21,600 nucleotides of DNA, from positions 1 to 21,600 of IMG/VR virus record IMGVR_UViG_3300008954_000319. One strand, 5' to 3'. The first letter of the stretch is position 1. Each line of letters starts with the position of its first letter. The notes under the pieces were generated by a model, which saw nothing but the letters and a program-made list of their open reading frames with translations, had not been told where the DNA came from and searched no databases. Below, piece by piece: positions 5,304-21,600 of this stretch. Source of the DNA: a virus. The translations under genes were made by a program, and so were the position numbers.

Positions 5304-5305
5304 TA

Positions 5306-5389
5306 CCCGATGTAGTTCAATTGGTAGAATAATACGGCTCAGGCGCCTTAGAGTTTCGTATCGTCTTGGTTCAAGTCCAAGTATCGGGT
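5306..5389 (+). tRNA. tRNA-Leu(CAG)-like gene with irregular anticodon arm
   Basis: The acceptor CCCGATG pairs with TATCGGG (one G-U). The D arm is GTTC-AATTGGTA-GAAT and the T arm is CTTGG-TTCAAGT-CCAAG. Its 84-base length suits a class II tRNA with a long variable arm. The anticodon stem TACGG (5333-5337) pairs with CCTTA (5346-5350) with one C-U mismatch, and the loop CTCAGGCG has eight bases and would show CAG. Alternatively ATACG (5332-5336) pairs with CGTAT (5357-5361), giving a long hairpin with no anticodon loop. The discriminator is T, unusual for leucine. Identity is therefore tentative. Confidence 0.55.
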
Positions 5390-5395
5390 TTTAAT

Positions 5396-6017: not shown

Positions 6018-6594
6018 ATTATAATTTAATTTAGAACACCCTCTGGTGATAGGGGAAGGCTTCGAATATTACGCCTATTACCAGATTTTTAAAACTGAAT
6101 AAGAACATATGCATGGGGGTAATTGCCCGTGCATCGGACGGTGACAGAACAATTTTTTGTTATTGAAGATAATGTATATGATTCCCTGTAGTGGGGTGTG
6201 AATGCTCATATGAGTAAAGCAGAATTTAACTGATTCAATTGTAGTGCGATTAGGGAATATCAATACTAGATAACCCCGAAAGTTGTGGGTAAATGTTAGT
6301 CCCACCCGTCCACGAACAACTCCATTGAGAGGGCAAGCGTTATTGAGTTAATGCCACCTTCCCAAGGCGCCTTACCCTCAAGGTGTAAAAAGCGAGGTAA
6401 TCCTGAATATGATTCAAACTATTTCGTTCTTGCCATGCGTAAATTACGGCACTTGCGGCTGAGTATCCGTGACTGAAAACTGCTCTCAAACTTCTCGTTC
6501 CTTCGAGTACAAGGCCTTCGGTGACATCACGATGCAACCCAATGCGGAAGCACACGATGTGAAGATGATGTAAGATTCATTACGACTTGAGTGA
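6018..6594 (+). ncRNA. Gene-free stretch, candidate large structured RNA
   Basis: This is the longest stretch without a + strand gene in a tightly packed genome. It holds many complementary segments: 6043-6052 with 6075-6084 (10 pairs), 6109-6117 with 6126-6134 (9 pairs), 6181-6187 with 6252-6258 (7 pairs), 6281-6286 with 6316-6321, 6325-6332 with 6375-6381, 6355-6360 with 6380-6385 (competing, possible pseudoknot), and 6494-6497 with 6504-6507. It lies downstream of a promoter, a tRNA block and a regulator. Size and setting recall giant phage RNAs such as GOLLD, which also sit near tRNA genes. I cannot confirm a family. No intron or ribozyme core is recognised. Confidence 0.5.
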
Positions 6595-8649: not shown

Positions 8650-8983
8650 GGGGTCGAACGGTATCGACTGGTTAACAGAATAAGAGATAGCATGTCGAGG
8701 TTGGTCAGCACGCCTCGTAAAAAGCAGACCAAATGCTTAACTGGCAACAATAGTTACTCTCGAGCGGCTTGACCGCTTGACCACAATTTCTTTACTCCGA
8801 TAGAGAAGGCGTGGCAAACATCGGATAGATACGACCAGATGGTGGTGACAGAAAGTATCGAAATTACACCCACCAACCTCACCAAGTTTGTCGCCGAACA
8901 ACAGTGAGTACAACAGGCGACTATGCATGTAGACATCCTTTGGAAGTTAATGCAGCACGGGGGTTCGAATCCCCCCGACTCCA
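8650..8983 (+). ncRNA. ssrA: tmRNA (one-piece, phage-encoded), predicted tag GNNSYSRAA
   Basis: tmRNA rescues stalled ribosomes and adds a degradation tag. The 5' end GGGGTCGAACGG and the 3' end with GGGGG-TTCGAAT-CCCCC followed by CGACTCC-A form the tRNA-like domain, with acceptor GGGGTCG (8650-8656) paired to CGACTCC (8976-8982). The tag frame reads GGC AAC AAT AGT TAC TCT CGA GCG GCT TGA (8743-8772), giving Gly-Asn-Asn-Ser-Tyr-Ser-Arg-Ala-Ala. The end is Arg-Ala-Ala instead of the usual Leu-Ala-Ala. No CCA is encoded. At 334 bases, size and order are normal for a one-piece tmRNA. tRNA-Glu follows after 12 bases. Confidence 0.95.
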
Positions 8984-8995
8984 TTCCCCAAATTC

Positions 8996-11700: not shown

Positions 11701-12360
11701 ATGAAAAGTTTTTCCGAGTTCAAAAAAACACCTAACCTGTCCGAATTGGTCTATAAGACTGCTCCCGATTTTAATGATCATCGTGTCATGACGAAGGAAG
11801 TGGTTTTATTTGATATGTCCCAACCCTTCGATATAAACCCACCTTTAGCAAATGATAGTGAAGAGGTATATGTTGAATTGATGGAGATTGCCGACCATAT
11901 GGAATTAACTTTATTCGAAGATAAACAACAGGCAGAAGAGTATGATACCATAACATTTTCTGATGCATTTATTGATTATTGTATAGAGAATGGTCTTCCT
12001 ATCAACGAATCTAAGATAGTTAAGATGACAAAAGAGATGGGCATTATTGATAGACAGATGAAATATCGATTCAATCGACCACGACCATCACAGATTGCAG
12101 AAGCAAGAGAAGTTAAATTTCCTGAAATCCATACTAATACAGGCAACACGCCATCGTATCCATCAGGACACGCATTGGCATCACGGGTCTTTTCGTTGTA
12201 TTTGGGTAACATATTCCCATCTCACAAACAAGAATTCCTAAATATAGAAGAACAAATAGGGATATCCCGTATGCAACTTGGTGTACACTTCCCAAGTGAT
12301 ATTGAAGCGGGTGCATCAGTTGGGAACCAACTATACCAAAGGTTAAAGGATAAGACATGA
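11701..12360 (+). CDS. PAP2-family (class A acid) phosphatase with capsid-targeting-like leader
   Basis: This 219-residue phosphatase uses a covalent phospho-histidine intermediate to remove phosphate from lipids, nucleotides or sugars. All three PAP2 motifs are present: KYRFNRPRP (KX6RP, about 121-129), YPSGHA (PSGH, about 152-157), and SRMQLGVHFPSD (SRX5HX3D, about 187-198). The enzyme should be active. No membrane spans are seen, so it resembles soluble acid phosphatases. The N-terminus MKSFSEFKKTPNLSE looks like a T4 capsid-targeting leader ending in L-x-E. The gene starts at ATG 11701 with GGAG upstream, heads the operon, and overlaps the next gene by ATGA. The substrate is unknown. Confidence 0.9.
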   Translation: MKSFSEFKKTPNLSELVYKTAPDFNDHRVMTKEVVLFDMSQPFDINPPLANDSEEVYVELMEIADHMELTLFEDKQQAEEYDTITFSDAFIDYCIENGLPINESKIVKMTKEMGIIDRQMKYRFNRPRPSQIAEAREVKFPEIHTNTGNTPSYPSGHALASRVFSLYLGNIFPSHKQEFLNIEEQIGISRMQLGVHFPSDIEAGASVGNQLYQRLKDKT

Positions 12361-13700
12361 AATCATTTATGACACACTCTGAGTTACTAGTAGAGGCAGA
12401 CACTTCTGCTTCTACGCTTTTTGAACAAGTAATTTGCGATTGTTGGAATATTATCTCCAAGAATCCTAAAATGACTTTTGAACAATGGATGGGGTCATCG
12501 AAGAAAGAAATGGCATTCCTTAAATCGTTTGTGAAAAAATATGGTGGGAAGAAATTTGGTATCCCTGCTGTAAAGAAAAACGATTACGAACCAGCACTCG
12601 GCAAAATGTATAGATTTGCAAAACTTCTCCACAATAAAGCAAGTAAACTTGGTGGTTCAGCCGAACAGGTTGGAAGAGACAAGGGTGCAGTATCGGGTTG
12701 GTGGAAAGACATGACAGCCAAGAAGGTGGACACTTGGAAAACGGATATTGCGATTGGTTCTGCACGAATATCTGTTAAAAATGGTAAGGGTGCAAGGCTT
12801 ATGTCTGGAGTCACCGAAGAATCTGTCGCAACTCTTCATGCTGCCGCTAAAAAGTCTAAACTAGATGAAGTACTTCGAACAGATATAGAAATACTAATGA
12901 ATGAGTTCGTATCATTAAAACTTTGGAATCAGCCAGGCACTCCATTGGCCAATCCAAATACGGGTGCTGGTGAGAAGGTTTTGAAAATTGATAAGAAAGA
13001 AAGAGATAAATGGTTATCTGATAGAAACAAAGAGTCACTCGAAATTTTACAAGAAGGTTACGACCTAAAAGACAAAGTTGTTAAAGCGGTAGAAACGGCC
13101 TTTAGTTCCAATCCATCATTTCAAAGAGCATTTGCATATGAAGCCTGTACAGGATGGGAAAAGTTTGGTGGTAAAGTTTTCGGAAAAGCCGGTGAAGATG
13201 CTGCTCGTGCAGATTACATGTTAGCATTCTCGGAAGACCTCGAAAAACTAAGAATAGAACACATGGGTTCGGTTAGTTCTAAAGTCATCGGGCATATTGC
13301 AGGGCAAATGTCAATAGCCCCCGATTTCAAGAGCAATCGCTTTTCAGAAAGAGGGAAGAAGGCCGGACAAAAAATTTATCAATCATTTCAAATGAAACTG
13401 ACAACAATCTTTAAAGATGCAGATAAAATCCAAAAAGAATCAAATGAAGAAATTGAAAAATGGGAAAACATGTTGACTGAAGGACTTATTTCAGAACTTG
13501 CATTATGGGACAAGATAAAATCTATCACATCGAAGATGTGGAATGCTTTCAAGGAGATGTGGGCCCGAGCAAGAACAGCAATGTTGGAATTTGTTGATAA
13601 GGTAAAGCAAGCACTTAACGAAGGATTGAATGGCATACTTGCCGCCTTCGATTTTGATATTAGTGCAGTAAAACACAAAACGGAGGTTAACCTATTATGA
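12357..13700 (+). CDS. Possible PD-(D/E)xK nuclease-like virion protein with capsid-targeting-like leader
   Basis: The 447-residue protein has a leader MKSFMTHSELLVE followed by Ala, which matches the T4 prohead protease site (L/I-x-E, then A/G). Residues 127-152 contain WKTDIAIGSARISVKNGKG followed by RLMSG. The spacing of Asp130 and S-x-K (139-141), with a second strand between, resembles the D...(D/E/S)xK core of restriction-endonuclease-fold nucleases. The rest is helical, and the C-terminal 100 residues include amphipathic helices (WNAFKEMWARARTAMLEFV). A strong site GGAGG near its end drives the next gene. If the leader is cleaved, this could be a nuclease injected with the DNA. The function is an inference; a purely structural role is possible. 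Confidence 0.6.
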   Translation: MKSFMTHSELLVEADTSASTLFEQVICDCWNIISKNPKMTFEQWMGSSKKEMAFLKSFVKKYGGKKFGIPAVKKNDYEPALGKMYRFAKLLHNKASKLGGSAEQVGRDKGAVSGWWKDMTAKKVDTWKTDIAIGSARISVKNGKGARLMSGVTEESVATLHAAAKKSKLDEVLRTDIEILMNEFVSLKLWNQPGTPLANPNTGAGEKVLKIDKKERDKWLSDRNKESLEILQEGYDLKDKVVKAVETAFSSNPSFQRAFAYEACTGWEKFGGKVFGKAGEDAARADYMLAFSEDLEKLRIEHMGSVSSKVIGHIAGQMSIAPDFKSNRFSERGKKAGQKIYQSFQMKLTTIFKDADKIQKESNEEIEKWENMLTEGLISELALWDKIKSITSKMWNAFKEMWARARTAMLEFVDKVKQALNEGLNGILAAFDFDISAVKHKTEVNLL

Positions 13701-14026
13701 GCGAAGACACACCACTAGAAAACTATTTCGAAGAAGTCGATTTTGGATTCACGGCTGTCGATGCCGATTCTGTAGAAGGAAACGAAACAGATGGCACACA
13801 ATCTTCCGAATCTCTTCAACGACTTGAGGGCAAGGTTGATTCTTTAATCAGTTGTGCCACAACGGAAAGTGCATACAGAGATAAGTTCGATGATATCGAA
13901 GCACTCATTATTCCCCTCCTCTATAACCTGAAGAAAAACCCAGATAAAGAATATATCTATTGGCCTGATCGAGAAGAAAAACTTCAAGAACAGATTGATA
14001 AGATTATCAGTATCACTAGGAGTTGA
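13697..14026 (+). CDS. Conserved marine T4-like phage protein of unknown function
   Basis: The 109-residue protein starts at ATG 13697 with CGGAGGTTAACC upstream, overlapping the previous stop. The acidic start ENYFEEVDFGFTAVDAD, a short helix (LQRLEGKVDSLIS) and the end LLYNLKKNPDKEYIYWPDRE, with a final helix, form a pattern I have seen in T4-like marine phages, without known function. The Tyr/Trp-rich end and helix suggest a protein-protein contact, perhaps in the head or as an adaptor. It carries no leader peptide of the MKxF type. Confidence 0.68.
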   Translation: MSEDTPLENYFEEVDFGFTAVDADSVEGNETDGTQSSESLQRLEGKVDSLISCATTESAYRDKFDDIEALIIPLLYNLKKNPDKEYIYWPDREEKLQEQIDKIISITRS

Positions 14027-14028
14027 CG

Positions 14029-15222
14029 ATGAAAGTGTTTAGTGAGTTCCTAACGGAGTCAAAAAATCTCCACATGGAACATCTGGAAGATTCTGTTTTT
14101 AACGAAGGGTCGGCCGGTGTGCTTGACGCTATTCGTTTTCTAGAGTCTATCAAGAACATGTTAACTTCGTCTGAAGAAAGTGGTATTCGTGTTACAGTAA
14201 AATGGGACGGTGCGCCTGCTGTGTTTGCGGGAACCAATCCAGAGAATGGTAAATTCTTTGTAGGAACCAAATCAATATTCAATAAAGTCACCCCAAAGAT
14301 TAATTACACAAATGCAGACATTGACTCGAATCACAGTGGTAATCTTGCAAGTAAATTAAAGGTTGCATTGAAGTATATGCCAGACTTAGGAATTAAAGAT
14401 GTATTACAGGGAGATTTATTATTCACCGATGATGTTGCACCCGAAAAAATCGATGGTGAAATTTATTACACCTTTACACCAAACACTATCACTTATGCGG
14501 TTCCTGTTACCAGTGACATGGGCAAAGTAATTAAAAAAGCAAAGATGGGTATTGTATTTCACACCAAATATTCTGGTAAAACCATGGCAGACATGAAGGC
14601 ATCCTTTAATCCAAATGTAAAATCATTATCCTCCTCATCGGACATCTATTTCAGTGATGCAGATGTAGAAGATTTTTCTGGTGTTATGATTACAGATACC
14701 GAGAAAAAAGATATAGAAGATTCTCTTGCAAAATGTAAATCGCTTTTAAGAAAATCAACAAAAGTAATTGATATAATTTCTAACGATGCCAGTTTAGTAG
14801 AACAGATTAAAATATTCTCTAATACTTTAATTCGTGCTGGTGCGGTTAATGCAACGGTTGATGCATTTCTAGAACACATGGAGAATAGATTTGATGGTGA
14901 GATAGAAAAAGCAAAAAGTGATAAAGGAAAAGCAAATAAACAAAAAGCAAAGAAAGATTTCATGAAGAAGATTAAGAAATCTGCATTGCAGGCTTCATTC
15001 GCATTACATACTGCTTTGATAGATGCAAAGATGCCTCTTATTCGTAAATTAGAATCTATTAAATCAATGGGTTCATTTATTAAAACAAACAACGGTTATC
15101 GTGTAACCGCCCCTGAAGGGTTTGTTGCTGTGGATTTAGACGGCAAAGCCCTTAAACTTATTGATAGATTAGAATTCAGTCGTGCGAACTTTACAGTCGC
15201 AAAGAACTGGGATAAAACCTGA
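14029..15222 (+). CDS. DUF6267-like protein with KxDG motif and capsid-targeting-like leader
   Basis: The 397-residue protein starts at ATG 14029 behind TAGGAGTTGACG; the TTG at 14023 is rejected. The leader MKVFSEFLTE fits the series in this operon; a second site, VFNE then Gly, lies at 23-27. Residues 55-68 read VTVKWDGAPAVFAG. KWDG matches motif I (KxDG) of ATP-dependent ligases and nucleotidyltransferases, where Lys takes the AMP. A later KMGIVFHTKYSG could be the motif IV-like strand. The overall pattern matches a family common in marine T4-like phages (DUF6267, by memory). The C-terminal third is Lys-rich and helical. Possible roles are nucleic-acid end joining or adenylation, but activity is unproven. 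Confidence 0.68.
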   Translation: MKVFSEFLTESKNLHMEHLEDSVFNEGSAGVLDAIRFLESIKNMLTSSEESGIRVTVKWDGAPAVFAGTNPENGKFFVGTKSIFNKVTPKINYTNADIDSNHSGNLASKLKVALKYMPDLGIKDVLQGDLLFTDDVAPEKIDGEIYYTFTPNTITYAVPVTSDMGKVIKKAKMGIVFHTKYSGKTMADMKASFNPNVKSLSSSSDIYFSDADVEDFSGVMITDTEKKDIEDSLAKCKSLLRKSTKVIDIISNDASLVEQIKIFSNTLIRAGAVNATVDAFLEHMENRFDGEIEKAKSDKGKANKQKAKKDFMKKIKKSALQASFALHTALIDAKMPLIRKLESIKSMGSFIKTNNGYRVTAPEGFVAVDLDGKALKLIDRLEFSRANFTVAKNWDKT

Positions 15223-15245
15223 TACATAGAATAGGAGAAACAACT

Positions 15246-15377
15246 ATGAGACGATCAGAAGTAAGAAAAACCGATTCAAGAGCTAAGGAACGAAGAAGAC
15301 GAGCCGAAGCCGCAGAGCAAGTTGCAGTTGTAGCACCTGCCCCTGTAAAAAAGAAATCTTCTGTTAAGAAGAAGTAA
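15246..15377 (+). CDS. Small basic protein
   Basis: A 43-residue frame runs from ATG 15246 (AGGAGAAACAACT upstream) to TAA 15377. It is very basic at both ends (MRRSEVRKTDSRAKERRRRA and KKKSSVKKK), with an Ala/Val/Pro linker in the middle. Composition suggests DNA or RNA binding, for example a DNA-condensing internal protein. No family is recognised. The good ribosome site and position between two operon genes support it. Confidence 0.62.
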   Translation: MRRSEVRKTDSRAKERRRRAEAAEQVAVVAPAPVKKKSSVKKK

Positions 15378-15388
15378 AGGAAACTATT

Positions 15389-15493
15389 ATGTTTGAAGAT
15401 ATTTGGTGGAGCGCTTTAATGTTCATCGGTGGAGCACTTATTGGTGTACCTCTGTGGAATTGGCTCAAAACAAAGTTGCCTTGGAGCAACTAA
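15389..15493 (+). CDS. Small single-span membrane protein
   Basis: A 34-residue frame runs from ATG 15389 (AAAGGAAACTATT upstream) to TAA 15493. Residues 5-25 (IWWSALMFIGGALIGVPLW) form one hydrophobic span with flanking Trp residues, and the tail is NWLKTKLPWSN. It would insert in the inner membrane. The role is unknown: possibly lysis timing, injection or membrane anchoring. Confidence 0.6.
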   Translation: MFEDIWWSALMFIGGALIGVPLWNWLKTKLPWSN

Positions 15494-15553
15494 TTAATTA
15501 GAGGTCGTGACCAGAGGGCAAACGGTGGTTGACGAACTCGGAGGTGATCAAAA

Positions 15554-17842
15554 ATGATCGATTTTCAATCTTTACAAAATAAACTCGATGAAAAGCGTGC
15601 GAACGCTGTCGTTTTTACATTTGGCAGATTCCAACCACCCACCTCTGGTCATGAGTTCTTAATTAATAATACAATTAAAGAAGCAAAGAAAAGAGGGGCA
15701 GAGAATAGAATCTACATGAGTAGAAGAGATGAACCAAAAAAGAATCCTCTTAAAATACGAGACAAGATTAAATTCCTGAAGAAGTTCTTTCCGAAAGCCA
15801 ACATCATGAACGACCCAAAGGCCGATAATCCTTTTCAGGTTTGTGAACAATTAACGGCAGAAGGTGTACGAGATGTTATTATGGTCGTTGGTTCTGACCG
15901 TGTACAAGAATTTAAAGATGGAATCGAACAATATATTGGCCCCGATGGATATGATTTTGATTCGTTTGATGTAGTAAGTGCTGGTCAGCGTGACCCCGAA
16001 GCATCTGGTGTTGTTGGTATGTCTGGAACAAAGATAAGAGCGGCAGTAACAAATAATGATTTCACAACCTTTAACCAAGGACTACCAAGTACGGCAAAAG
16101 ATAGAGATGCTCGTGCATTGTTTGATGCAATGAAAAAAGGAATGGGTATTCGTGAAGAAGTTATATCCGAGGGCATCAGTAACACACAACTTAAAACTAT
16201 TGCAAAAGATAGAGATGTTGTTGATATGTTGAAAGACCTCTACAGAGAACCCCACGAAACTATTGGAATCGCTCTTTTATCGTTGCCTCATGTGGAAGAT
16301 GTTCTTGGTGCAATTAGTGACCGCATAGTTCGGCAATTCATTACTAAAATTCCTATGCTTATGAATTTTGCAAGCATTGTCAGTCATGTAGAATCTCCAG
16401 CAAAACCAGTTCTGTCTGAAATAACGAGCCAACCTGCGGTGCGACTAGCTGACCCCCTAACACCCCGCATTTTCCTTAATGAACAGGAAGATAAAAAGAA
16501 AGACCCCATCATTGTTACTGCTCTAACATCAGGTGAAGGTGATGACAGTAAAGATACTGTTACTAAAATTGAAAAATCTTGTAAGAAGTTTGGACTTACA
16601 ATGCACACTGTTAGAGTCGGAGAAGCATATGTTGTGGATGACGATTTGAATGATGATAAGATTACCATATACAACTACGATGGAGATAAAAACGACTTAG
16701 ACATCGAAGCCTCCAAGACATGTTGTTTTGTTCGTGGTGGTGCCCTTGTTGACATTACTGGAATAGGAATTGCAAAAACTCTACAAGAGGCTGGTGTTTT
16801 CTTAATTAATGACATGGAGGCAATGGAACTTTGTCAAAATAAATTTGCAACATCTATTGCACTTCAGAAGGCAGGAATCCTTCATCCCAAAACTGCACTT
16901 GTAACAAACGAAGATGCCATCGAAACTGTACACGAAAAGGTCGGTGGTAAGTTCCCTGTGGTTGTAAAGACCATCACTGGTGCAGAAGGAATTGGTGTCA
17001 TGATTATTGATAGTATGCCATCCCTCAAGTCTGTACTACAGGGTTTGTGGAAATACAATGCAGAACTAATCGTTCAAGAGTACATGGACATCGACTTTGA
17101 TGTTAGAACACTTGTACTAGACGGAAAGATTCATGCATCCGTAAAACGATTAAAATCAAACTCAAGGGAGTTCCGTACTAACAAGGCCTTGGGCAACGAT
17201 ACAGAACCTTATATTCTGAATGAGGGTGAAAAGAAAATCATATTAAAGGCTGCAAGTATATCGGGTTGTTATTATTGTGGTGTTGACCATGTTGTTGTAA
17301 ATGGTGAAAATCTAATACTAGAAGTTAACGGTTCGCCGGGTTCTGGTGCAGAACCATACATGAGTTATTATAAGGAAGATAAAAAAACAACTGGCCAAGA
17401 AATGATTGATAATGTTGTTGAATATATTTCGGATACAGACAACTGGGACAGAGATAAAGTTGTTGTTGGTGTCGTTGAGAATGTTGATATAGAAGGAATG
17501 AAGTTTAAAGCAAAGATGGATACGGGAAATGGAAGTTACACGGCTATTCATGCTACTGACATTAAACAATTGAGTGATACACGGGTTTCATTTAAGATAG
17601 AAGGTAAGAAATTTATCAAACCTATCGAGGGAGTGAAACGCATTCGTGTAAGTGGTGCAGAAAAGAAAGAAGAAAGATTTGTTGTAGAACTGGACATGGG
17701 TTTCGGTACGGGGAAAAAATCTTCAACACTGTTTAGTTTAGATGACAGGGATGATATGATTTATCCTGTACTAGTCGGCAAACGAGAATTATTGAAACGG
17801 GGGTATATCGTTGATGTTGGGAAGAAATTTACGATATCCTAG
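15554..17842 (+). CDS. Tripartite fusion: nucleotidylyltransferase + RimK-like ATP-grasp ligase + RimB-like protease domain
   Basis: The 762-residue protein starts at ATG 15554 behind a perfect GGAGGTGATC site. Residues 15-200 are a cytidylyltransferase/NMNAT-type domain: FTFGRFQPPTSGH (HxGH-like, 21-33) and MSGTKIRAA (ISSTxxR-like, 156-164). Residues 200-318 are a linker. Residues 319-630 are RimK-like ATP-grasp: QNKFATSIALQKAG (428-441), KFPVVVKT (466-473), LIVQEYMD, and LILEVNGSPGSG (587-598), which supplies the metal ligands. Residues 636-762 resemble the 'ATP-dependent zinc protease'/RimB family: FKAKMDTGNGSYTAIHA (651-667, with the D-T-G) and YPVLVGKRELLKRGYIVDVG. RimK adds glutamates to ribosomal protein S6 or joins amino acids to peptides, and RimB is its operon partner. 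The fusion suggests a self-contained modifying system with unknown substrate. Confidence 0.85.
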   Translation: MIDFQSLQNKLDEKRANAVVFTFGRFQPPTSGHEFLINNTIKEAKKRGAENRIYMSRRDEPKKNPLKIRDKIKFLKKFFPKANIMNDPKADNPFQVCEQLTAEGVRDVIMVVGSDRVQEFKDGIEQYIGPDGYDFDSFDVVSAGQRDPEASGVVGMSGTKIRAAVTNNDFTTFNQGLPSTAKDRDARALFDAMKKGMGIREEVISEGISNTQLKTIAKDRDVVDMLKDLYREPHETIGIALLSLPHVEDVLGAISDRIVRQFITKIPMLMNFASIVSHVESPAKPVLSEITSQPAVRLADPLTPRIFLNEQEDKKKDPIIVTALTSGEGDDSKDTVTKIEKSCKKFGLTMHTVRVGEAYVVDDDLNDDKITIYNYDGDKNDLDIEASKTCCFVRGGALVDITGIGIAKTLQEAGVFLINDMEAMELCQNKFATSIALQKAGILHPKTALVTNEDAIETVHEKVGGKFPVVVKTITGAEGIGVMIIDSMPSLKSVLQGLWKYNAELIVQEYMDIDFDVRTLVLDGKIHASVKRLKSNSREFRTNKALGNDTEPYILNEGEKKIILKAASISGCYYCGVDHVVVNGENLILEVNGSPGSGAEPYMSYYKEDKKTTGQEMIDNVVEYISDTDNWDRDKVVVGVVENVDIEGMKFKAKMDTGNGSYTAIHATDIKQLSDTRVSFKIEGKKFIKPIEGVKRIRVSGAEKKEERFVVELDMGFGTGKKSSTLFSLDDRDDMIYPVLVGKRELLKRGYIVDVGKKFTIS

Positions 17843-17853
17843 CATTTAAAAGA

Positions 17854-17863
17854 GATAAATAAC
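17854..17863 (+). promoter_or_regulatory. T4-late-promoter-like motif (GATAAATAAC)
   Basis: GATAAATAAC agrees with the TATAAATA late promoter of T4 and its cyanophage variants at most positions, and is similar to the TTATACATAC motifs in this window. Transcription would begin at about 17868, inside the start of the next ORF. If used, translation would therefore begin at ATG 17974, which has its own GGTGAGGAG site. Confidence 0.35.
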
Positions 17864-17865
17864 TT

Positions 17866-18780
17866 ATGAGTAAAAAAACAAAATGTACTAGTGGTGCTGG
17901 AGAAGAAGGAACAGACCAACTTCGAAAAAACTACGAAGAAGATACGCCCGGCCAGGGTGAGGAGAAAAAGAAAATGAAGTTTAAAGAACTTAGAAATAAG
18001 ATCAATGAGTGGTCAACGGGTCACAATGAATTCGAAATTGCGGGTTCGGACACTGACATCATGTATATTGAAAATGCTGAAACCCGTGTTCGTCTTAATA
18101 CCTTTATCAAAGCTGTTGCACATCACCCAACCCTTAATGTTTATGAAACATTGGCAAAGGTTCGGGTCAAGTTGAATGGTGCTGGATTAGATTTTGAACC
18201 ACCTAAAAGTGGTGCAGTACAAGAGGTAATGGAATTTCCTTTATCCCTGTTCGGTGGCAGAACTGGCATGGGTGATGATGGACAACCAATCAATGATGAT
18301 GGATTAAAGAATCGTACAGGTCGTGAATGGGTTCTTCGTGTTACTTCTGAAGAAACTTCAGATGGTTATGTTCTTAGTCCTTCGATTGAAGAAGTTGCAC
18401 TTGTTGAAGAGTCTTGGATACCAGAAGGAACTGAACCTGAAAATTTTGAATTAGCCGAGGGCAAAATCGAAGAGAGAGAACTAGAACTGTTTGTTGCAAA
18501 CGATGCTCAAATCTACCGTTCTCGGCTGCAACCAATTTATAAGAATCTTATTACTAAGATTGCTCAAGGTAAGTATGACGAAAAAAAGGCAGTGAAAGCT
18601 TTCATGTATGCTGTTGATGATGCAGCAAAGAAGTACACGAAAGATTTCGGTACGCCTGGTGATGAAATATTTGACAAGAAGACCAAGTTAGCAGTTGCTG
18701 CTACTCTTGCTTCTGAATTTAAAGATGAGGCCGATGAAGGAAATTATGACGACATGCTTCCAAAGAAATATCGTTCATGA
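17866..18780 (+). CDS. Virion-associated protein of unknown function, two possible starts
   Basis: The 304-residue ORF begins at ATG 17866. Its first 36 residues (KCTSGAGEEGTDQLRKNYEE, then DTPGQ) resemble a peptide I have seen in marine phage proteins, so they are probably translated. ATG 17974, behind GGTGAGGAG, gives a shorter form starting MKFKELRNKINE, like the leader peptides of neighbouring genes (I-x-E at the end). Middle: YIENAETRVRLNTFIKAVAH, then GRTGMGDDGQPINDD; C-terminus helical (NLITKIAQGKYDEKKAVKAF). I recognise it only as a likely conserved T4-like marine phage structural or internal protein. Its stop is followed after one base by the next start. Confidence 0.65.
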   Translation: MSKKTKCTSGAGEEGTDQLRKNYEEDTPGQGEEKKKMKFKELRNKINEWSTGHNEFEIAGSDTDIMYIENAETRVRLNTFIKAVAHHPTLNVYETLAKVRVKLNGAGLDFEPPKSGAVQEVMEFPLSLFGGRTGMGDDGQPINDDGLKNRTGREWVLRVTSEETSDGYVLSPSIEEVALVEESWIPEGTEPENFELAEGKIEERELELFVANDAQIYRSRLQPIYKNLITKIAQGKYDEKKAVKAFMYAVDDAAKKYTKDFGTPGDEIFDKKTKLAVAATLASEFKDEADEGNYDDMLPKKYRS

Positions 18781-18781
18781 G

Positions 18782-19150
18782 ATGAATATTGAACTAGATG
18801 ATGATAACCTTTTGAACTATGCGATGAAGCACTATGACAATCCAGAGTGCAAATCAATTGAAGAATTTCAAGAGGACTTGACCAGAACCAAATATATTAA
18901 ACGGTTGTTTCGCAAGTATAAATCGTCTGGTGAATTAAAAGAACGATTGATTCTAAATCATATTATTATTTTTTACAATGTATTTGGCATTGAAGCGGCA
19001 ACAAACATTTTGTTTTTTAAGATTGAAGATGAATTTTGGCCCTTATTGAAAACCTTTCTAGTTTACCTAGACATGTTCCCCGAAAATGATATAGAGAAGA
19101 TTAGGATTCCGTTAGAGAACACAGTCATTGAAGTATTAAGGAAAATCTAA
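18782..19150 (+). CDS. Conserved T4-like marine phage protein of unknown function
   Basis: The 122-residue protein starts at ATG 18782, one base after the upstream stop; the longer ORF to 18695 is the shadow of that gene. The sequence YAMKHYDNPECKSIEEFQED, then KYIKRLFRKYKSSGELKERL and ILNHIIIFYNVFGIEAATNI, is a pattern I associate with a small conserved virion-region protein of marine T4-like phages. It is mostly helical, with a hydrophobic middle. It overlaps the next start by TAATG. Function unknown. Confidence 0.72.
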   Translation: MNIELDDDNLLNYAMKHYDNPECKSIEEFQEDLTRTKYIKRLFRKYKSSGELKERLILNHIIIFYNVFGIEAATNILFFKIEDEFWPLLKTFLVYLDMFPENDIEKIRIPLENTVIEVLRKI

Positions 19151-19716
19151 TGAGTGCTTTAGACATCTTTGTTGCCTACAAGTTTATTAAGATACTTACC
19201 ACGCCGTTTGAAAAAACGGATGCATATAAACTGGGAATCATAGACAAAAAAGGTGAGATTTTAAAGAAGCGCAAAAAATTAGTAACAGGTAAAGAGAAGA
19301 TGGCATATACTATCTTCCATACCCTCGGATGGAATCTTAAAAAACTTTTAGCTAAGTTTCCCCCAACCAGAACAAAACTTGGATCATTCGCTGCTGCACT
19401 TTATCTTTTGAAAGAAGAGGCCAAGTGCAACGATGAACATTTAATAGAGAACACATTTATAGATTTTCTACATACTAATGGTTATACTTTTGTCATAAAT
19501 GAGAGTATTACCGAAGCAGTATTAGAAAAGGGTGATTATGCCCTTGTAGTTGATGTGGATACTCCCAAAGAACCCGTTCATCAGGGAGACATTGTTAGGG
19601 TAGACAAGGACACGGAACACTTTACATTAATGATGGGGAAACCTTTATTCAAGGTGACACATCTTAAATCAGGAAAAACATTGGTGGTATCAGATGAAGA
19701 CTTGGAAAAAATTTAA
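19150..19716 (+). CDS. Conserved T4-like marine phage protein of unknown function
   Basis: The 188-residue protein starts at ATG 19150. The N-terminal part FVAYKFIKILTTPFEKTDAY, then KLGIIDKKGEILKK and EKMAYTIFHTLGWNLKKLLA, is strongly similar to a family I know from cyanophages and other marine T4-like phages, where it lies in the structural region. The C-terminal 60 residues have alternating strands (DYALVVDVDTPKEPVHQGDI, LFKVTHLKSGKTLVVS) like a small beta-barrel. Its last 23 bases overlap the leader of the next gene in another frame. Function unknown. Confidence 0.74.
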   Translation: MSALDIFVAYKFIKILTTPFEKTDAYKLGIIDKKGEILKKRKKLVTGKEKMAYTIFHTLGWNLKKLLAKFPPTRTKLGSFAAALYLLKEEAKCNDEHLIENTFIDFLHTNGYTFVINESITEAVLEKGDYALVVDVDTPKEPVHQGDIVRVDKDTEHFTLMMGKPLFKVTHLKSGKTLVVSDEDLEKI

Positions 19717-21082
19717 AACAGACAACATCCACGAAGCAGAAACTCTTAGTTGGAAATCTTTGAATCCCAGTGAGAGAAAAGACCTTCTAAAAGATGCTGG
19801 TTTACCCCCTTCGTTTGCTAAAGAGACTTGGAAAGAATTAGATTTCCGTGCCAAAGAACGAATCGGTAAGATGATTCATAAGACTACCCAAGGTGAGTTC
19901 CGAATGGATGAAGCGTGGACACCAGATAGTGTAACTCGAAATGCTGAAATCGGTTCTAAAAAAGGTTATGGTATCAATATCAAAAAGGGTGGTGGAGTTA
20001 CCAAAACCCCATTCAAACACATGCTTATGACAATTCGCAAACACGGGAATGTCAGAGTTACTTTTGACCACGGTAAAGATGAGTTTGAAGGTACGCCCCA
20101 ATCAGTTGCCCTTCACATTAATAAAATCCTTGGTATTAAAGAATCCGTTGAAGTGGATGAAAAACATGCACCCTTGCCAGCGTCAACCAGTTTTGCATTG
20201 GTGTATTCCTACAAAGGAAAGACCAATAAGTTCGTCACCAAACTTACTAACCTCGGTGGTAAGTTAGACCGTGCAAAGAAAGAAGTTCGTTTTGAATTTA
20301 AAAGTGCGGCCGCAAGAAAGAATTTTAAGAAGAAAAACAAAGAGATATTAGACAACCTCGGTGAGTCTGCTGTACTTCATAATCTACTAGATGAAGCCCC
20401 CAACACCCTAATTGATAAAGCAATGAAATATATTGATAAAAAACGGGGAGTTGGAGGAAAGGTTTGGGGCGACAGATGGAAAGTCCGTCAAGACATGAAA
20501 CTAACCAAAGCAACATCTGATTCTGGTGGTTCAGTTGAGAAGTTAAAACATGAGGAGTATAATCAAATGAAAACATACAAACAACTTATCACAGAGTTAT
20601 TCGATAACCCATATAAACTAAGTCCAAGTTTTAAAACAAAACCACAGTATTATGATGACAATGAAGGTTATACTTTTAAAACCAAGGACGGTAGAAAATA
20701 CGAAATCAATGCACAACATATTACCCTTCTTGGGGTAGACCACCATAGCAATCAGAAAATCGAGATTGCATTTGCAGTTGTATATGACGATGGTAGAAAA
20801 TCTGACGATATGACAAACAAAGGTGATGCGGGTAGAATTTTTGCAACTGCAATGGAATTCATAGACAAAATAATTAAAAGAGATGACCCAAAACAATTAA
20901 TATTTGCGGCCAAACAGAATGAAAGAGAAAAGGGTGAAAATCTAAGCAGTAGAGAGAAATTATATAGAAGGTTTATAATGAAATTAGCAAAAAAATACAA
21001 ATATAAGGCGTATATGTATAAAAGTGACGGTGAAGGTAAAACCTATTTTGAACTAGAAAAGAAAAAGGAAATAAAAATATGA
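19694..21082 (+). CDS. Putative internal head protein, two-part with a second leader inside
   Basis: The 462-residue protein starts at ATG 19694 with leader MKTWKKFKTDNIHE then Ala, a good match to the I-x-E|A prohead-protease site. Residues 16-60 (SWKSLNPSERKDLLKDAGL) resemble a phage internal-protein module. Residues 151-227 form a basic module (FALVYSYKGKTNKFVTKL) that recurs in the next gene. LLDE then Ala at 231-235 is another candidate cleavage site. Residue 292 begins a second leader, MKTYKQLITE, with GAGGAG nine bases upstream. The part after it (FAVVYDDGRK, RIFATAMEFIDKIIK, SSREKLYRRFIMKLAKKY) is a separate domain common in phages, of unknown function. It is either a processed polyprotein or a gene with an internal start. 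Confidence 0.7.
   Translation: MKTWKKFKTDNIHEAETLSWKSLNPSERKDLLKDAGLPPSFAKETWKELDFRAKERIGKMIHKTTQGEFRMDEAWTPDSVTRNAEIGSKKGYGINIKKGGGVTKTPFKHMLMTIRKHGNVRVTFDHGKDEFEGTPQSVALHINKILGIKESVEVDEKHAPLPASTSFALVYSYKGKTNKFVTKLTNLGGKLDRAKKEVRFEFKSAAARKNFKKKNKEILDNLGESAVLHNLLDEAPNTLIDKAMKYIDKKRGVGGKVWGDRWKVRQDMKLTKATSDSGGSVEKLKHEEYNQMKTYKQLITELFDNPYKLSPSFKTKPQYYDDNEGYTFKTKDGRKYEINAQHITLLGVDHHSNQKIEIAFAVVYDDGRKSDDMTNKGDAGRIFATAMEFIDKIIKRDDPKQLIFAAKQNEREKGENLSSREKLYRRFIMKLAKKYKYKAYMYKSDGEGKTYFELEKKKEIKI
20144..20374 (+). repeat. Duplicated basic module (second copy at 21145-21369)
   Basis: About 75 residues are shared between the protein at 19694 and the next gene: LPASTSFALVY versus LPKATGFALTY, VTKLTNLGGKLDR versus VTKLTKLGGKVDR, SAAARKNFKKKNKEIL versus TAAARTKFRKKNKELL, ending in SV then acidic residues. 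It is a protein-level paralogous duplication, already diverged in DNA. The module is basic and may bind DNA in the head. Confidence 0.8.
20567..21082 (+). CDS. Possible separate internal head protein from an in-frame internal start
   Basis: ATG 20567 is in frame within the larger ORF and is preceded by TGAGGAGTATAATCAA, an excellent ribosome binding site. The product would have 171 residues and begin MKTYKQLITELFDNPYKLSP. This resembles both T4 internal-protein leaders (MKTY.EFI.E) and the T4 Alt leader (ELITELFDED). The domain behind it is independent of the upstream part. Such a site is unlikely to occur by chance at a domain border, so a distinct protein is probable, alone or in addition to the long form. 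Confidence 0.5.
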   Translation: MKTYKQLITELFDNPYKLSPSFKTKPQYYDDNEGYTFKTKDGRKYEINAQHITLLGVDHHSNQKIEIAFAVVYDDGRKSDDMTNKGDAGRIFATAMEFIDKIIKRDDPKQLIFAAKQNEREKGENLSSREKLYRRFIMKLAKKYKYKAYMYKSDGEGKTYFELEKKKEIKI

Positions 21083-21600
21083 AAACTTTTAAACAACATA
21101 TTACCGAAGTACGAAGGATGACGGGTTATCCTTATCAGGAAGATTCTGTAGATGAAAGAACCTCACGACTTCCAAAAGCAACAGGATTTGCATTGACATA
21201 TCCTATGAAAGACAACCAGCAAGTCACAAAACTTACCAAACTTGGTGGAAAAGTAGACAGAGTAAATAAGAGAGTAGTTTTTAATTTTAATACTGCGGCT
21301 GCAAGAACTAAATTTCGTAAGAAGAATAAAGAACTTTTAGCAACTATAAAAGAATCCGTTGAACTGGATGAATCCTTCCCCAAGGGCCCTTGGGATACAA
21401 ATATCCCTGCGGATAAGAAAACCAAAGGATATATCGAAAGTGGTAGAGCAAAGATTCTAATAAATGTGCCTTCTTCTCTCTATCCTTCTGCTCGGTTTGT
21501 TGTGGCAAAAAATCCCAACAAAGGTAGCAACCAAGACAAAGTGATGATGTTTACCATTAGTGACCCAGACCGTGGCCGTATCAAAATGTTCTCATTCCAC
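21079..21600 (+). CDS. Putative internal head protein, partial (cut by window edge)
   Basis: ATG 21079 overlaps the upstream stop (ATGA), with AAAAGGAAATAAAA upstream. The 174 visible residues start with MKTFKQHITE, a leader of the same type. Residues 23-97 are a paralogue of the basic module in the preceding gene. After SVELDESFPKGPWDTNIPAD a new domain begins (AKILINVPSSLYPSARFVVA, DKVMMFTISDPDRGRIKMF), with strands and basic residues, and runs off the window. It is probably a DNA-associated capsid cargo protein. Confidence 0.72.
   Translation, partial: MKTFKQHITEVRRMTGYPYQEDSVDERTSRLPKATGFALTYPMKDNQQVTKLTKLGGKVDRVNKRVVFNFNTAAARTKFRKKNKELLATIKESVELDESFPKGPWDTNIPADKKTKGYIESGRAKILINVPSSLYPSARFVVAKNPNKGSNQDKVMMFTISDPDRGRIKMFSFH

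What the first reader, a model, noticed from the sequence alone, without database searches (positions are those of the whole stretch)
15554..17842. Fusion of nucleotidylyltransferase, RimK-like ligase and RimB-like protease domain
Three domains normally encoded separately are in one 762-residue protein among virion-type genes. RimK adds glutamates to ribosomal protein S6, or related ligases build peptides or modify them; the RimB family is the functional partner of RimK in bacteria. The N-terminal adenylyl- or cytidylyltransferase domain could activate a substrate. Such a phage enzyme could modify host ribosomes or a phage protein. Putative L/I-x-E sites in the linker (VISE|G 203-207, VLSE 286-289, FLNE 307-310) would even allow separation of the domains by a prohead protease.
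Basis: partly seen in the sequence, partly recalled or inferred. Interest (0 to 1): 0.75.

Follow-up and report, generated by a model that had tools for sequence, protein, structure and literature searches.

The report
Phage head-packaged RimK–RimB enzyme precursor
A marine T4-type phage gene joins three enzyme domains (a nucleotide transferase, a RimK-type amino-acid ligase and a RimB-type protease) in one protein whose relatives carry head-packaging signals and whose joints carry phage-protease cut motifs, so it is probably packed in the virus head, cut apart and injected to modify host proteins at the start of infection.

Summary
ORF 15554-17842 (+) is one intact 762-residue frame: an adenylyltransferase domain (about 14-206), a RimK ATP-grasp ligase (about 318-630) and a RimB/RloA retropepsin-like domain (about 635-762). 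Catalytic motifs of all three are kept, and invariant or nearly so across 70 and 42 relatives. The fusion is real: ten distinct fused loci from IMG/VR, in at least two tree groups.

[LI]xE motifs are about 4-fold denser at domain joints than inside domains (p about 1e-10). In the 75%-identical homologue the joint sequences differ but the motif stays. Stand-alone RimK-RimB relatives (21 of 29 nonredundant, versus 23 of 413 control ORFs) begin with a T4-type capsid-targeting peptide (MxxFxxFITE|). Seven of eight long related contigs encode the S77 protease. A relative of the NTase, with such a peptide, was found in cyanophage virions by published mass spectrometry.

Best reading: a head-packaged precursor, processed by the prohead protease and ejected with the DNA, delivering a glutamate-type ligase plus its trimming protease. 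Packaging and cleavage are inferred; the substrate is unknown, and ribosomal S6 is only one candidate. The RimB-RimK pairing itself is already known in bacteria (opposite order).

The parts
15554..17842 (+). Whole 762-residue ORF: NTase - helical linker - RimK - RimB
15554..15592 (+). Predicted propeptide / capsid-targeting peptide MIDFQSLQNKLDE| (residues 1-13), motif conserved as NRLDE| in L002
   Evidence: inference from the T4 gp21 rule L/I-X-E (PMC9026906)
15593..16171 (+). Adenylyltransferase (NMNAT/NadD/CoaD-like) domain, residues 14-206
15623..15652 (+). NTase motif GRFQPPTSGH (residues 24-33); G24, R25, P28, G32, H33 invariant in 70 relatives
16016..16039 (+). NTase motif GMSGTKIR (residues 155-162; ISTKIR-like); G155, S157, K160, R162 invariant in 70 relatives
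16160..16171 (+). Predicted prohead-protease site VISE| (203-206); VLSE| in L002
16172..16483 (+). Linker 207-310, with sites VLSE| (286-289; SLDE| in L002) and FLNE| (307-310; DIVE| in L002)
16484..17455 (+). RimK-type ATP-grasp ligase, residues 311-634; K430, K472, E509, D516, R518, R532, R541, N543, D578, E590, N592 invariant in 42 relatives
17456..17839 (+). RimB/RloA retropepsin-like domain, residues 635-762
17519..17530 (+). Active-site motif D656-T-G-N659; D, G and N invariant in 42 of 42 relatives
14023..15222 (+). Conserved upstream partner gene (DUF6267, PF19782), N-terminus ...KVFSEFLTE|S; DUF6267 lies within 3 kb upstream of the NTase in 75 of 87 related loci; fused to the NTase family in phrog_455

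Best explanation
The gene encodes a precursor of capsid-internal, ejected enzymes in a T4-type (Kyanoviridae-like) marine phage. During prohead maturation the S77 protease (gp21 homologue) cuts after L/I-x-E at residue 13, at 206 and/or 289, and at 310, releasing an NMNAT-like adenylyltransferase and a two-domain RimK-RimB enzyme that remain in the head and enter the host with the DNA. In the host the RimK part uses ATP to add glutamate (or another amino acid) to a host protein, while the RimB part, a dimeric aspartic protease, trims the added tail and may stimulate the ligase, as RimB does for RimK in Pseudomonas. Shown here: domain identity, conserved catalytic residues, enrichment and conservation of L/I-x-E at joints, targeting peptides on stand-alone relatives, protease gene in related genomes. 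Inferred: packaging, cleavage, ejection, amino acid and target.
For: Catalytic residues invariant. RimK is the nearest solved relative by sequence (profile E 1.6e-56 versus 4e-31 for LysX) and heads the fold list (VIA Z 29.4 over 289 residues, tied with ArgX and LysX). [LI]xE density 42/1183 at joints versus 50/5742 in domains, Fisher p 1.3e-10. All seven fused proteins with a tail after RimB have [LI]xE there (p 5e-5 by shuffling). Joint motifs kept in L002 while residues change: LDE/LDE, ISE/LSE, LSE/LDE, LNE/IVE. Stand-alone RimK-RimB: 21 of 29 with F..[FYILV][ILVFT].E in the first 25 residues versus 23 of 413 controls, p 1.3e-17. S77 protease in 7 of 8 long contigs; [LI]xE just before the conserved core in gp23 of several of them. 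T4 gp21 cuts after L/I-X-E, and 10 residues of IPIII suffice for packaging (PMC9026906). Virion mass spectrometry: S-SCSM1 ORF91 (same phrog_395; starts MKSFLQFLKE|A) and S-CREM2 ORF154, 3 peptides (PMC9602691, PMC10665884). The YerA41 RimK-RimB homologue was found with purified particles (PMC7354516).
Against: No fused member and no CTS-bearing RimK-RimB has virion proteomics that I could find. The YerA41 particle list also holds polymerases and nucleotide enzymes, so co-purification is possible, and its homologue is listed outside the late genes. Authors of the cyanophage proteomes raise the same caveat. The window itself, a 21.6-kb fragment, does not contain the protease gene. The protein's own N-terminus (MIDFQSLQNKLDE) is less typical of a targeting peptide than those of its relatives. 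For the joint just before RimK taken alone, shuffling gives only p 0.015 (7 of 10). Three [LI]xE also lie inside the RimK part (410-412, 555-557, 588-590), presumably buried. Stand-alone RimK-RimB genes seen here lie beside replication genes (regA, DNA polymerase), not in the late structural block.
Confidence: 0.62

Rival explanations
1. The enzyme acts inside the assembling head: RimK adds amino acids to capsid or internal phage proteins (for example to change internal charge), and RimB limits the tails; no host target is involved.
For: Targeting peptides place the relatives in the prohead; YerA41 copy associated with particles.
Against: RimK needs ATP and free amino acid, which are unlikely to be kept in a packaged head (inference); packaged enzymes of T4 with known function, such as Alt and IPI, act in the host.
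Confidence: 0.12
2. It is an ordinary intracellular auxiliary enzyme made during infection (host translation control, poly-glutamate or NAD metabolism), and the L/I-x-E motifs at its joints are chance or only flexible-linker composition.
For: Stand-alone genes sit among replication genes; the YerA41 copy is not a late gene; RimK-only genes of S-RIM12 and S-RIM8 lack a targeting peptide, so phage RimK can be cytosolic.
Against: Enrichment at joints (p 1e-10), N-terminal signals in 21 of 29 RimK-RimB (p 1e-17), conserved motif with changed residues, virion detection of the NTase family.
Confidence: 0.18
3. The three domains stay joined and form one pathway: the NTase makes an adenylylated or dinucleotide substrate that the ligase attaches to a protein.
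For: Fusion in ten loci and at least two tree groups.
Against: [LI]xE motifs before RimK in most fused proteins; NTase fused to unrelated passengers (zeta-toxin/AAA_33, SET, DUF192, DUF5824); RimK-RimB common without an NTase fused to it; RimK chemistry needs only ATP and an amino acid.
Confidence: 0.08

Closest known systems
RimBK hybrid of Desulfotalea psychrophila and others (PMC11957791)
   Same: RimB-type aspartic protease and RimK-type ligase in one chain; RimB part active on polyglutamylated S6
   Different: Bacterial hybrid has RimB at the N-terminus of RimK; the phage proteins have RimK first and RimB last, an NTase in front, and L/I-x-E joints. The one near-full-length match in the cellular genome scan (L173) is itself a T4-type phage fragment
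T4 internal proteins and Alt (head-packaged, gp21-processed, ejected; PMC9026906)
   Same: N-terminal targeting peptide ending in L/I-x-E (in the relatives), S77 protease, delivery of an enzyme acting on host machinery
   Different: T4 examples lose an N-terminal propeptide; here several enzymes in one chain would be separated by internal sites; chemistry is amino-acid ligation, not ADP-ribosylation
RloA/RloC of Pseudomonas aeruginosa (PMC12239564)
   Same: Pairing of a retropepsin-like protease with an ATP-grasp protein; nearest NCBIfam protease model is RloA3
   Different: RloA is secreted and separate; the phage domain is fused, without a secretion signal seen, with DTGN instead of DTGA
Cyanophage virion NMNAT / cytidyltransferase (S-SCSM1 ORF91, S-CREM2 ORF154)
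   Same: S-SCSM1 ORF91 belongs to the same NTase family phrog_395 and has an N-terminal targeting-like peptide; both proteins detected in virions
   Different: No RimK-RimB passenger in S-SCSM1 ORF91; the sequence of S-CREM2 ORF154 was not examined here
Polyvalent proteins of phages and conjugative elements (PMC5512222)
   Same: Several unrelated enzyme domains in one invasion-phase protein, released by proteolysis
   Different: Those are released by embedded peptidases; here the joints fit the head-maturation protease; RimK is not mentioned in that paper

Membership tests
RimK-type ATP-grasp ligase (PF08443, TIGR00768) | Family profile match | tested here: met
   PF08443 114.6 bits over cut-off 21; TIGR00768 139.2 bits, just under its cut-off 143.4
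RimK-type ATP-grasp ligase (PF08443, TIGR00768) | Catalytic and Mg/ATP residues (two Lys, D..E.N, FRxN) | tested here: met
   K430, K472, D578, E590, N592, F540-R541, N543 invariant in 42
RimK-type ATP-grasp ligase (PF08443, TIGR00768) | RimK fold | tested here: met
   7qys Z 29.4, rmsd 2.8, 289 aligned
Ribosomal protein S6-glutamate ligase (equivalog PRK10446) | Equivalog score | tested here: not met
   78.1 bits versus cut-off 331
Ribosomal protein S6-glutamate ligase (equivalog PRK10446) | Glutamate ligation to S6 | not testable with these tools
   needs enzyme assay
RimB/RloA retropepsin-like proteases (PF05618) | Profile match | tested here: met
   50.2 bits, cut-off 27; solved RloA-type structures 9g58 and 9g59 matched, E 2e-12
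RimB/RloA retropepsin-like proteases (PF05618) | Catalytic DTG | tested here: met
   D656 and G658 42/42, T657 40/42
RimB/RloA retropepsin-like proteases (PF05618) | Ala after DTG (stated for RloA) | tested here: not met
   Asn659 in 42/42; feature from PMC12239564. So a sister branch rather than RloA itself
RimB/RloA retropepsin-like proteases (PF05618) | Dimer with two catalytic Asp | not testable with these tools
   only monomer modelled
NMNAT/NadD adenylyltransferases | T/HxGH and ISTKIR-like motifs | tested here: met
NMNAT/NadD adenylyltransferases | NMN/NaMN as substrate | tested here: inconclusive
   NadD first by Foldseek, CoaD and NadD/NMNAT tied by VIA; PF01467 18 bits under cut-off 21
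T4-type head-packaged gp21 substrates | L/I-X-E at propeptide end and joints | tested here: met
T4-type head-packaged gp21 substrates | Typical targeting peptide at N-terminus | tested here: inconclusive
   typical in stand-alone relatives, atypical in this protein
T4-type head-packaged gp21 substrates | S77 prohead protease in the same genome | tested here: inconclusive
   7 of 8 long contigs of relatives; window is a fragment
T4-type head-packaged gp21 substrates | Presence and cleavage in virions | not testable with these tools
   only relatives reported (PMC9602691, PMC10665884, PMC7354516)
Polyvalent proteins | Polyvalent-specific LPD domains and embedded peptidase | not tested
   Pfam showed only the three domains

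The most novel reading that the evidence does not exclude
NTase-led proteins of T4-type marine phages are a modular, head-packaged effector system: a targeting peptide and NMNAT-like domain in front, interchangeable C-terminal cargo behind, cut apart by the prohead protease. The RimK-RimB cargo is an injected writer-plus-eraser of protein glutamylation acting on the host translation or transcription machinery before any phage gene is expressed.
Probability: 0.4. Interest if true: 0.82.

Novelty: new variant of a known kind. Interest (0 to 1): 0.63.

Why it matters
If true, widespread marine T4-type phages (508 or more IMG/VR stretches encode a relative in one capped scan) carry a protein-glutamylation enzyme and its reversing protease inside the capsid, so host takeover could begin by post-translational amino-acid addition, a chemistry I did not find described for phage virions in the papers searched. 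It would also show the prohead protease acting as a polyprotein processor that lets one targeting peptide deliver several enzymes, and gives a simple sequence rule ([LI]xE joints) for finding other injected effectors.

Tried and rejected
Assembly or frameshift artefact: rejected, frame intact and nine other fused loci. Cellular origin of the fused module: the genome scan (one peptide pattern) found one near-full-length match, L173, whose neighbours (gp45, gp44, regA, gp43-like) make it a T4-type phage fragment filed under Parcubacteria; absence elsewhere is not proof. LysX/ArgX or glutathione synthetase instead of RimK: profile E-values favour RimK, although VIA Z ties RimK with ArgX and LysX. 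NTase substrate from sequence: PDB profile search gave nothing trustworthy. DUF6267 as RNA-ligase-like: suggestive motifs but no PDB sequence match. S-RIM12 and S-RIM8 RimK-only genes served as a contrast: no targeting peptide. A paper on amidoligases that may bear on RimK partners (PMC3268129) was not held. The C-terminal RimB part was hardly tested by the fold search because RimK hits filled the list.

Full report
What is there. The frame 15554-17842 (+) is intact and encodes 762 residues. Pfam places a RimK ATP-grasp domain at 428-597 and a Zn_protease/RimB domain at 637-760, both well above cut-off, and only a weak CTP_transf_like match in the N-terminal part; PHROGs identify that part as the phage 'cytidyltransferase' family with E-values near 1e-54. 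AlphaFold models built on alignments of loci fetched here are confident (pLDDT 89.5 for 1-210; 86.8 for 311-762). The first resembles NadD, NMNAT and CoaD adenylyltransferases; these tie, so the fold is set but the substrate is not. The second resembles RimK (VIA Z 29.4, 289 residues, rmsd 2.8; ArgX and LysX tie in fold), and by sequence profile RimK (E 1.6e-56) lies far ahead of LysX (4e-31). The RimB part matches solved RloA-type retropepsin-like proteases by profile (9g58, 9g59).

Are the active sites kept? Yes. Across 70 NTases G24, R25, P28, G32, H33 and G155, S157, K160, R162 are invariant; across 42 RimK-RimB proteins K430, K472, E509, D516, R518, R532, R541, N543, D578, E590, N592 and D656, G658, N659 are invariant, T657 nearly so.

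Is the fusion general? A profile scan of IMG/VR gave at least 508 stretches encoding RimK(-RimB) relatives and at least 594 encoding NTase relatives, 80 of each kept. Ten distinct loci hold NTase and RimK(-RimB) in one frame, the window included; one of them, L113, is cut by the contig end. On a tree of 42 RimK-RimB domains the fused rows need at least two changes, so the fusion arose or was lost more than once; two long branches meet there and rooting is arbitrary. Stand-alone RimK-RimB also occurs in isolates: Pelagibacter phage Mosig and Yersinia phage YerA41. The phage order, RimK then RimB, is the reverse of the bacterial RimBK hybrid, where RimB is N-terminal (PMC11957791).

The joints. 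T4 gp21 cuts after L/I-X-E, and the first ten residues of IPIII suffice to bring foreign proteins into the head and, on infection, into the host (PMC9026906). In this protein [LI]xE occurs at residues 11-13, 199-201, 204-206, 287-289 and 308-310, that is, before the NTase, after it, and just before RimK. In the 75%-identical L002 the same places read LDE, IRE, LSE, LDE and IVE. Over the ten fused proteins the motif density is 3.6% at joints versus 0.9% in domains (Fisher p 1.3e-10); background in other ORFs is 1.25%. Fused proteins with extra sequence after RimB have the motif there in seven of seven cases (shuffle p 5e-5), while the joint before RimK taken alone gives 7 of 10 and p 0.015. Sequences are related, so these p-values are approximate.

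The head signal. Twenty-one of 29 nonredundant stand-alone RimK-RimB proteins begin with a peptide such as MEKFKSFITE|, against 23 of 413 other ORFs of the same loci once DUF6267 is left out (p 1.3e-17). RimK-only genes of cyanophages S-RIM12 and S-RIM8 do not have it. The S77 prohead protease is present in seven of eight long contigs of relatives, and gp23 of several of them has [LI]xE just before its conserved core. S-SCSM1 ORF91, of the same NTase family and starting MKSFLQFLKE|A, and S-CREM2 ORF154 were detected in virions by mass spectrometry (PMC9602691, PMC10665884); their authors caution that abundant enzymes may co-purify. A YerA41 'ribosomal protein modification protein' (g112, taken here to be the RimK-RimB gene YerA41_066) is listed among particle-associated proteins, but that list includes replication enzymes and the gene is not in the late class (PMC7354516).

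The NTase as a carrier. Of 45 NTase proteins scanned, nine carry RimK plus RimB, fifteen DUF5824, two zeta-toxin/AAA_33, two SET, one DUF192, among others. Nearly all have DUF6267 just upstream (75 of 87 loci), itself often with a targeting peptide (27 of 56). The NTase and the RimK-RimB part therefore look like separate cargo sharing one precursor, not one pathway.

Mechanism and limits. The most likely course is packaging, cutting by the prohead protease, ejection with the DNA, and immediate ligation of glutamate or another amino acid to a host protein, tuned by the RimB part. Domain identity, residue conservation, motif enrichment and the protease gene in relatives are shown; packaging of this particular protein, the cuts, the amino acid and the target are inferred. 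Ribosomal S6 is possible, but the S6-ligase equivalog test is not met (78 vs 331 bits). The window is a 21.6-kb fragment without its own protease gene, and its N-terminus is a less typical targeting peptide.

Verdict. A real, recurrent, probably virion-borne multi-enzyme precursor; a new variant of the T4-type packaged effector, combined with a domain pair already known from bacteria.

Noticed in passing
window 8650-8986 (+): A tmRNA gene (Rfam RF00023, 120 bits; ARAGORN tag GNNSYSRAA) in a phage fragment that also holds eight tRNA genes.
   Followed up: no
window 14023-15222 (+): DUF6267 carries motifs resembling covalent nucleotidyltransferases/RNA ligases (KWDG, QGD, EGFV, KLxDR) conserved in nearly all of 57 homologues; it is the constant upstream neighbour of the NTase. 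No PDB sequence match.
   Followed up: partly
window 11701-21600 (+): Several neighbouring genes start with targeting-like peptides containing L/I-x-E (PAP2 phosphatase 11701, 12357, 14023, 19694, 21079), so the block may be a cassette of head-internal proteins.
   Followed up: partly
window 6111-6315 (+): manA RNA motif (RF01745), 60 bits, just above the gathering score.
   Followed up: no
L002:4166-6589 (residues about 301-360), L116 and L091 C-termini: A recurring basic module (K..F..RYG.D...VMY.TATKMA) follows or separates domains in several of these proteins (phrog_12788 in L002 and L116).
   Followed up: no
L173 (PBQF01000074.1): Contig filed as Parcubacteria MAG is a T4-type phage fragment by its genes.
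   Followed up: partly
window 5305-5390 (+): ARAGORN reports a tRNA with a four-base anticodon (cagg), a possible frameshift suppressor or degenerate tRNA.
   Followed up: no
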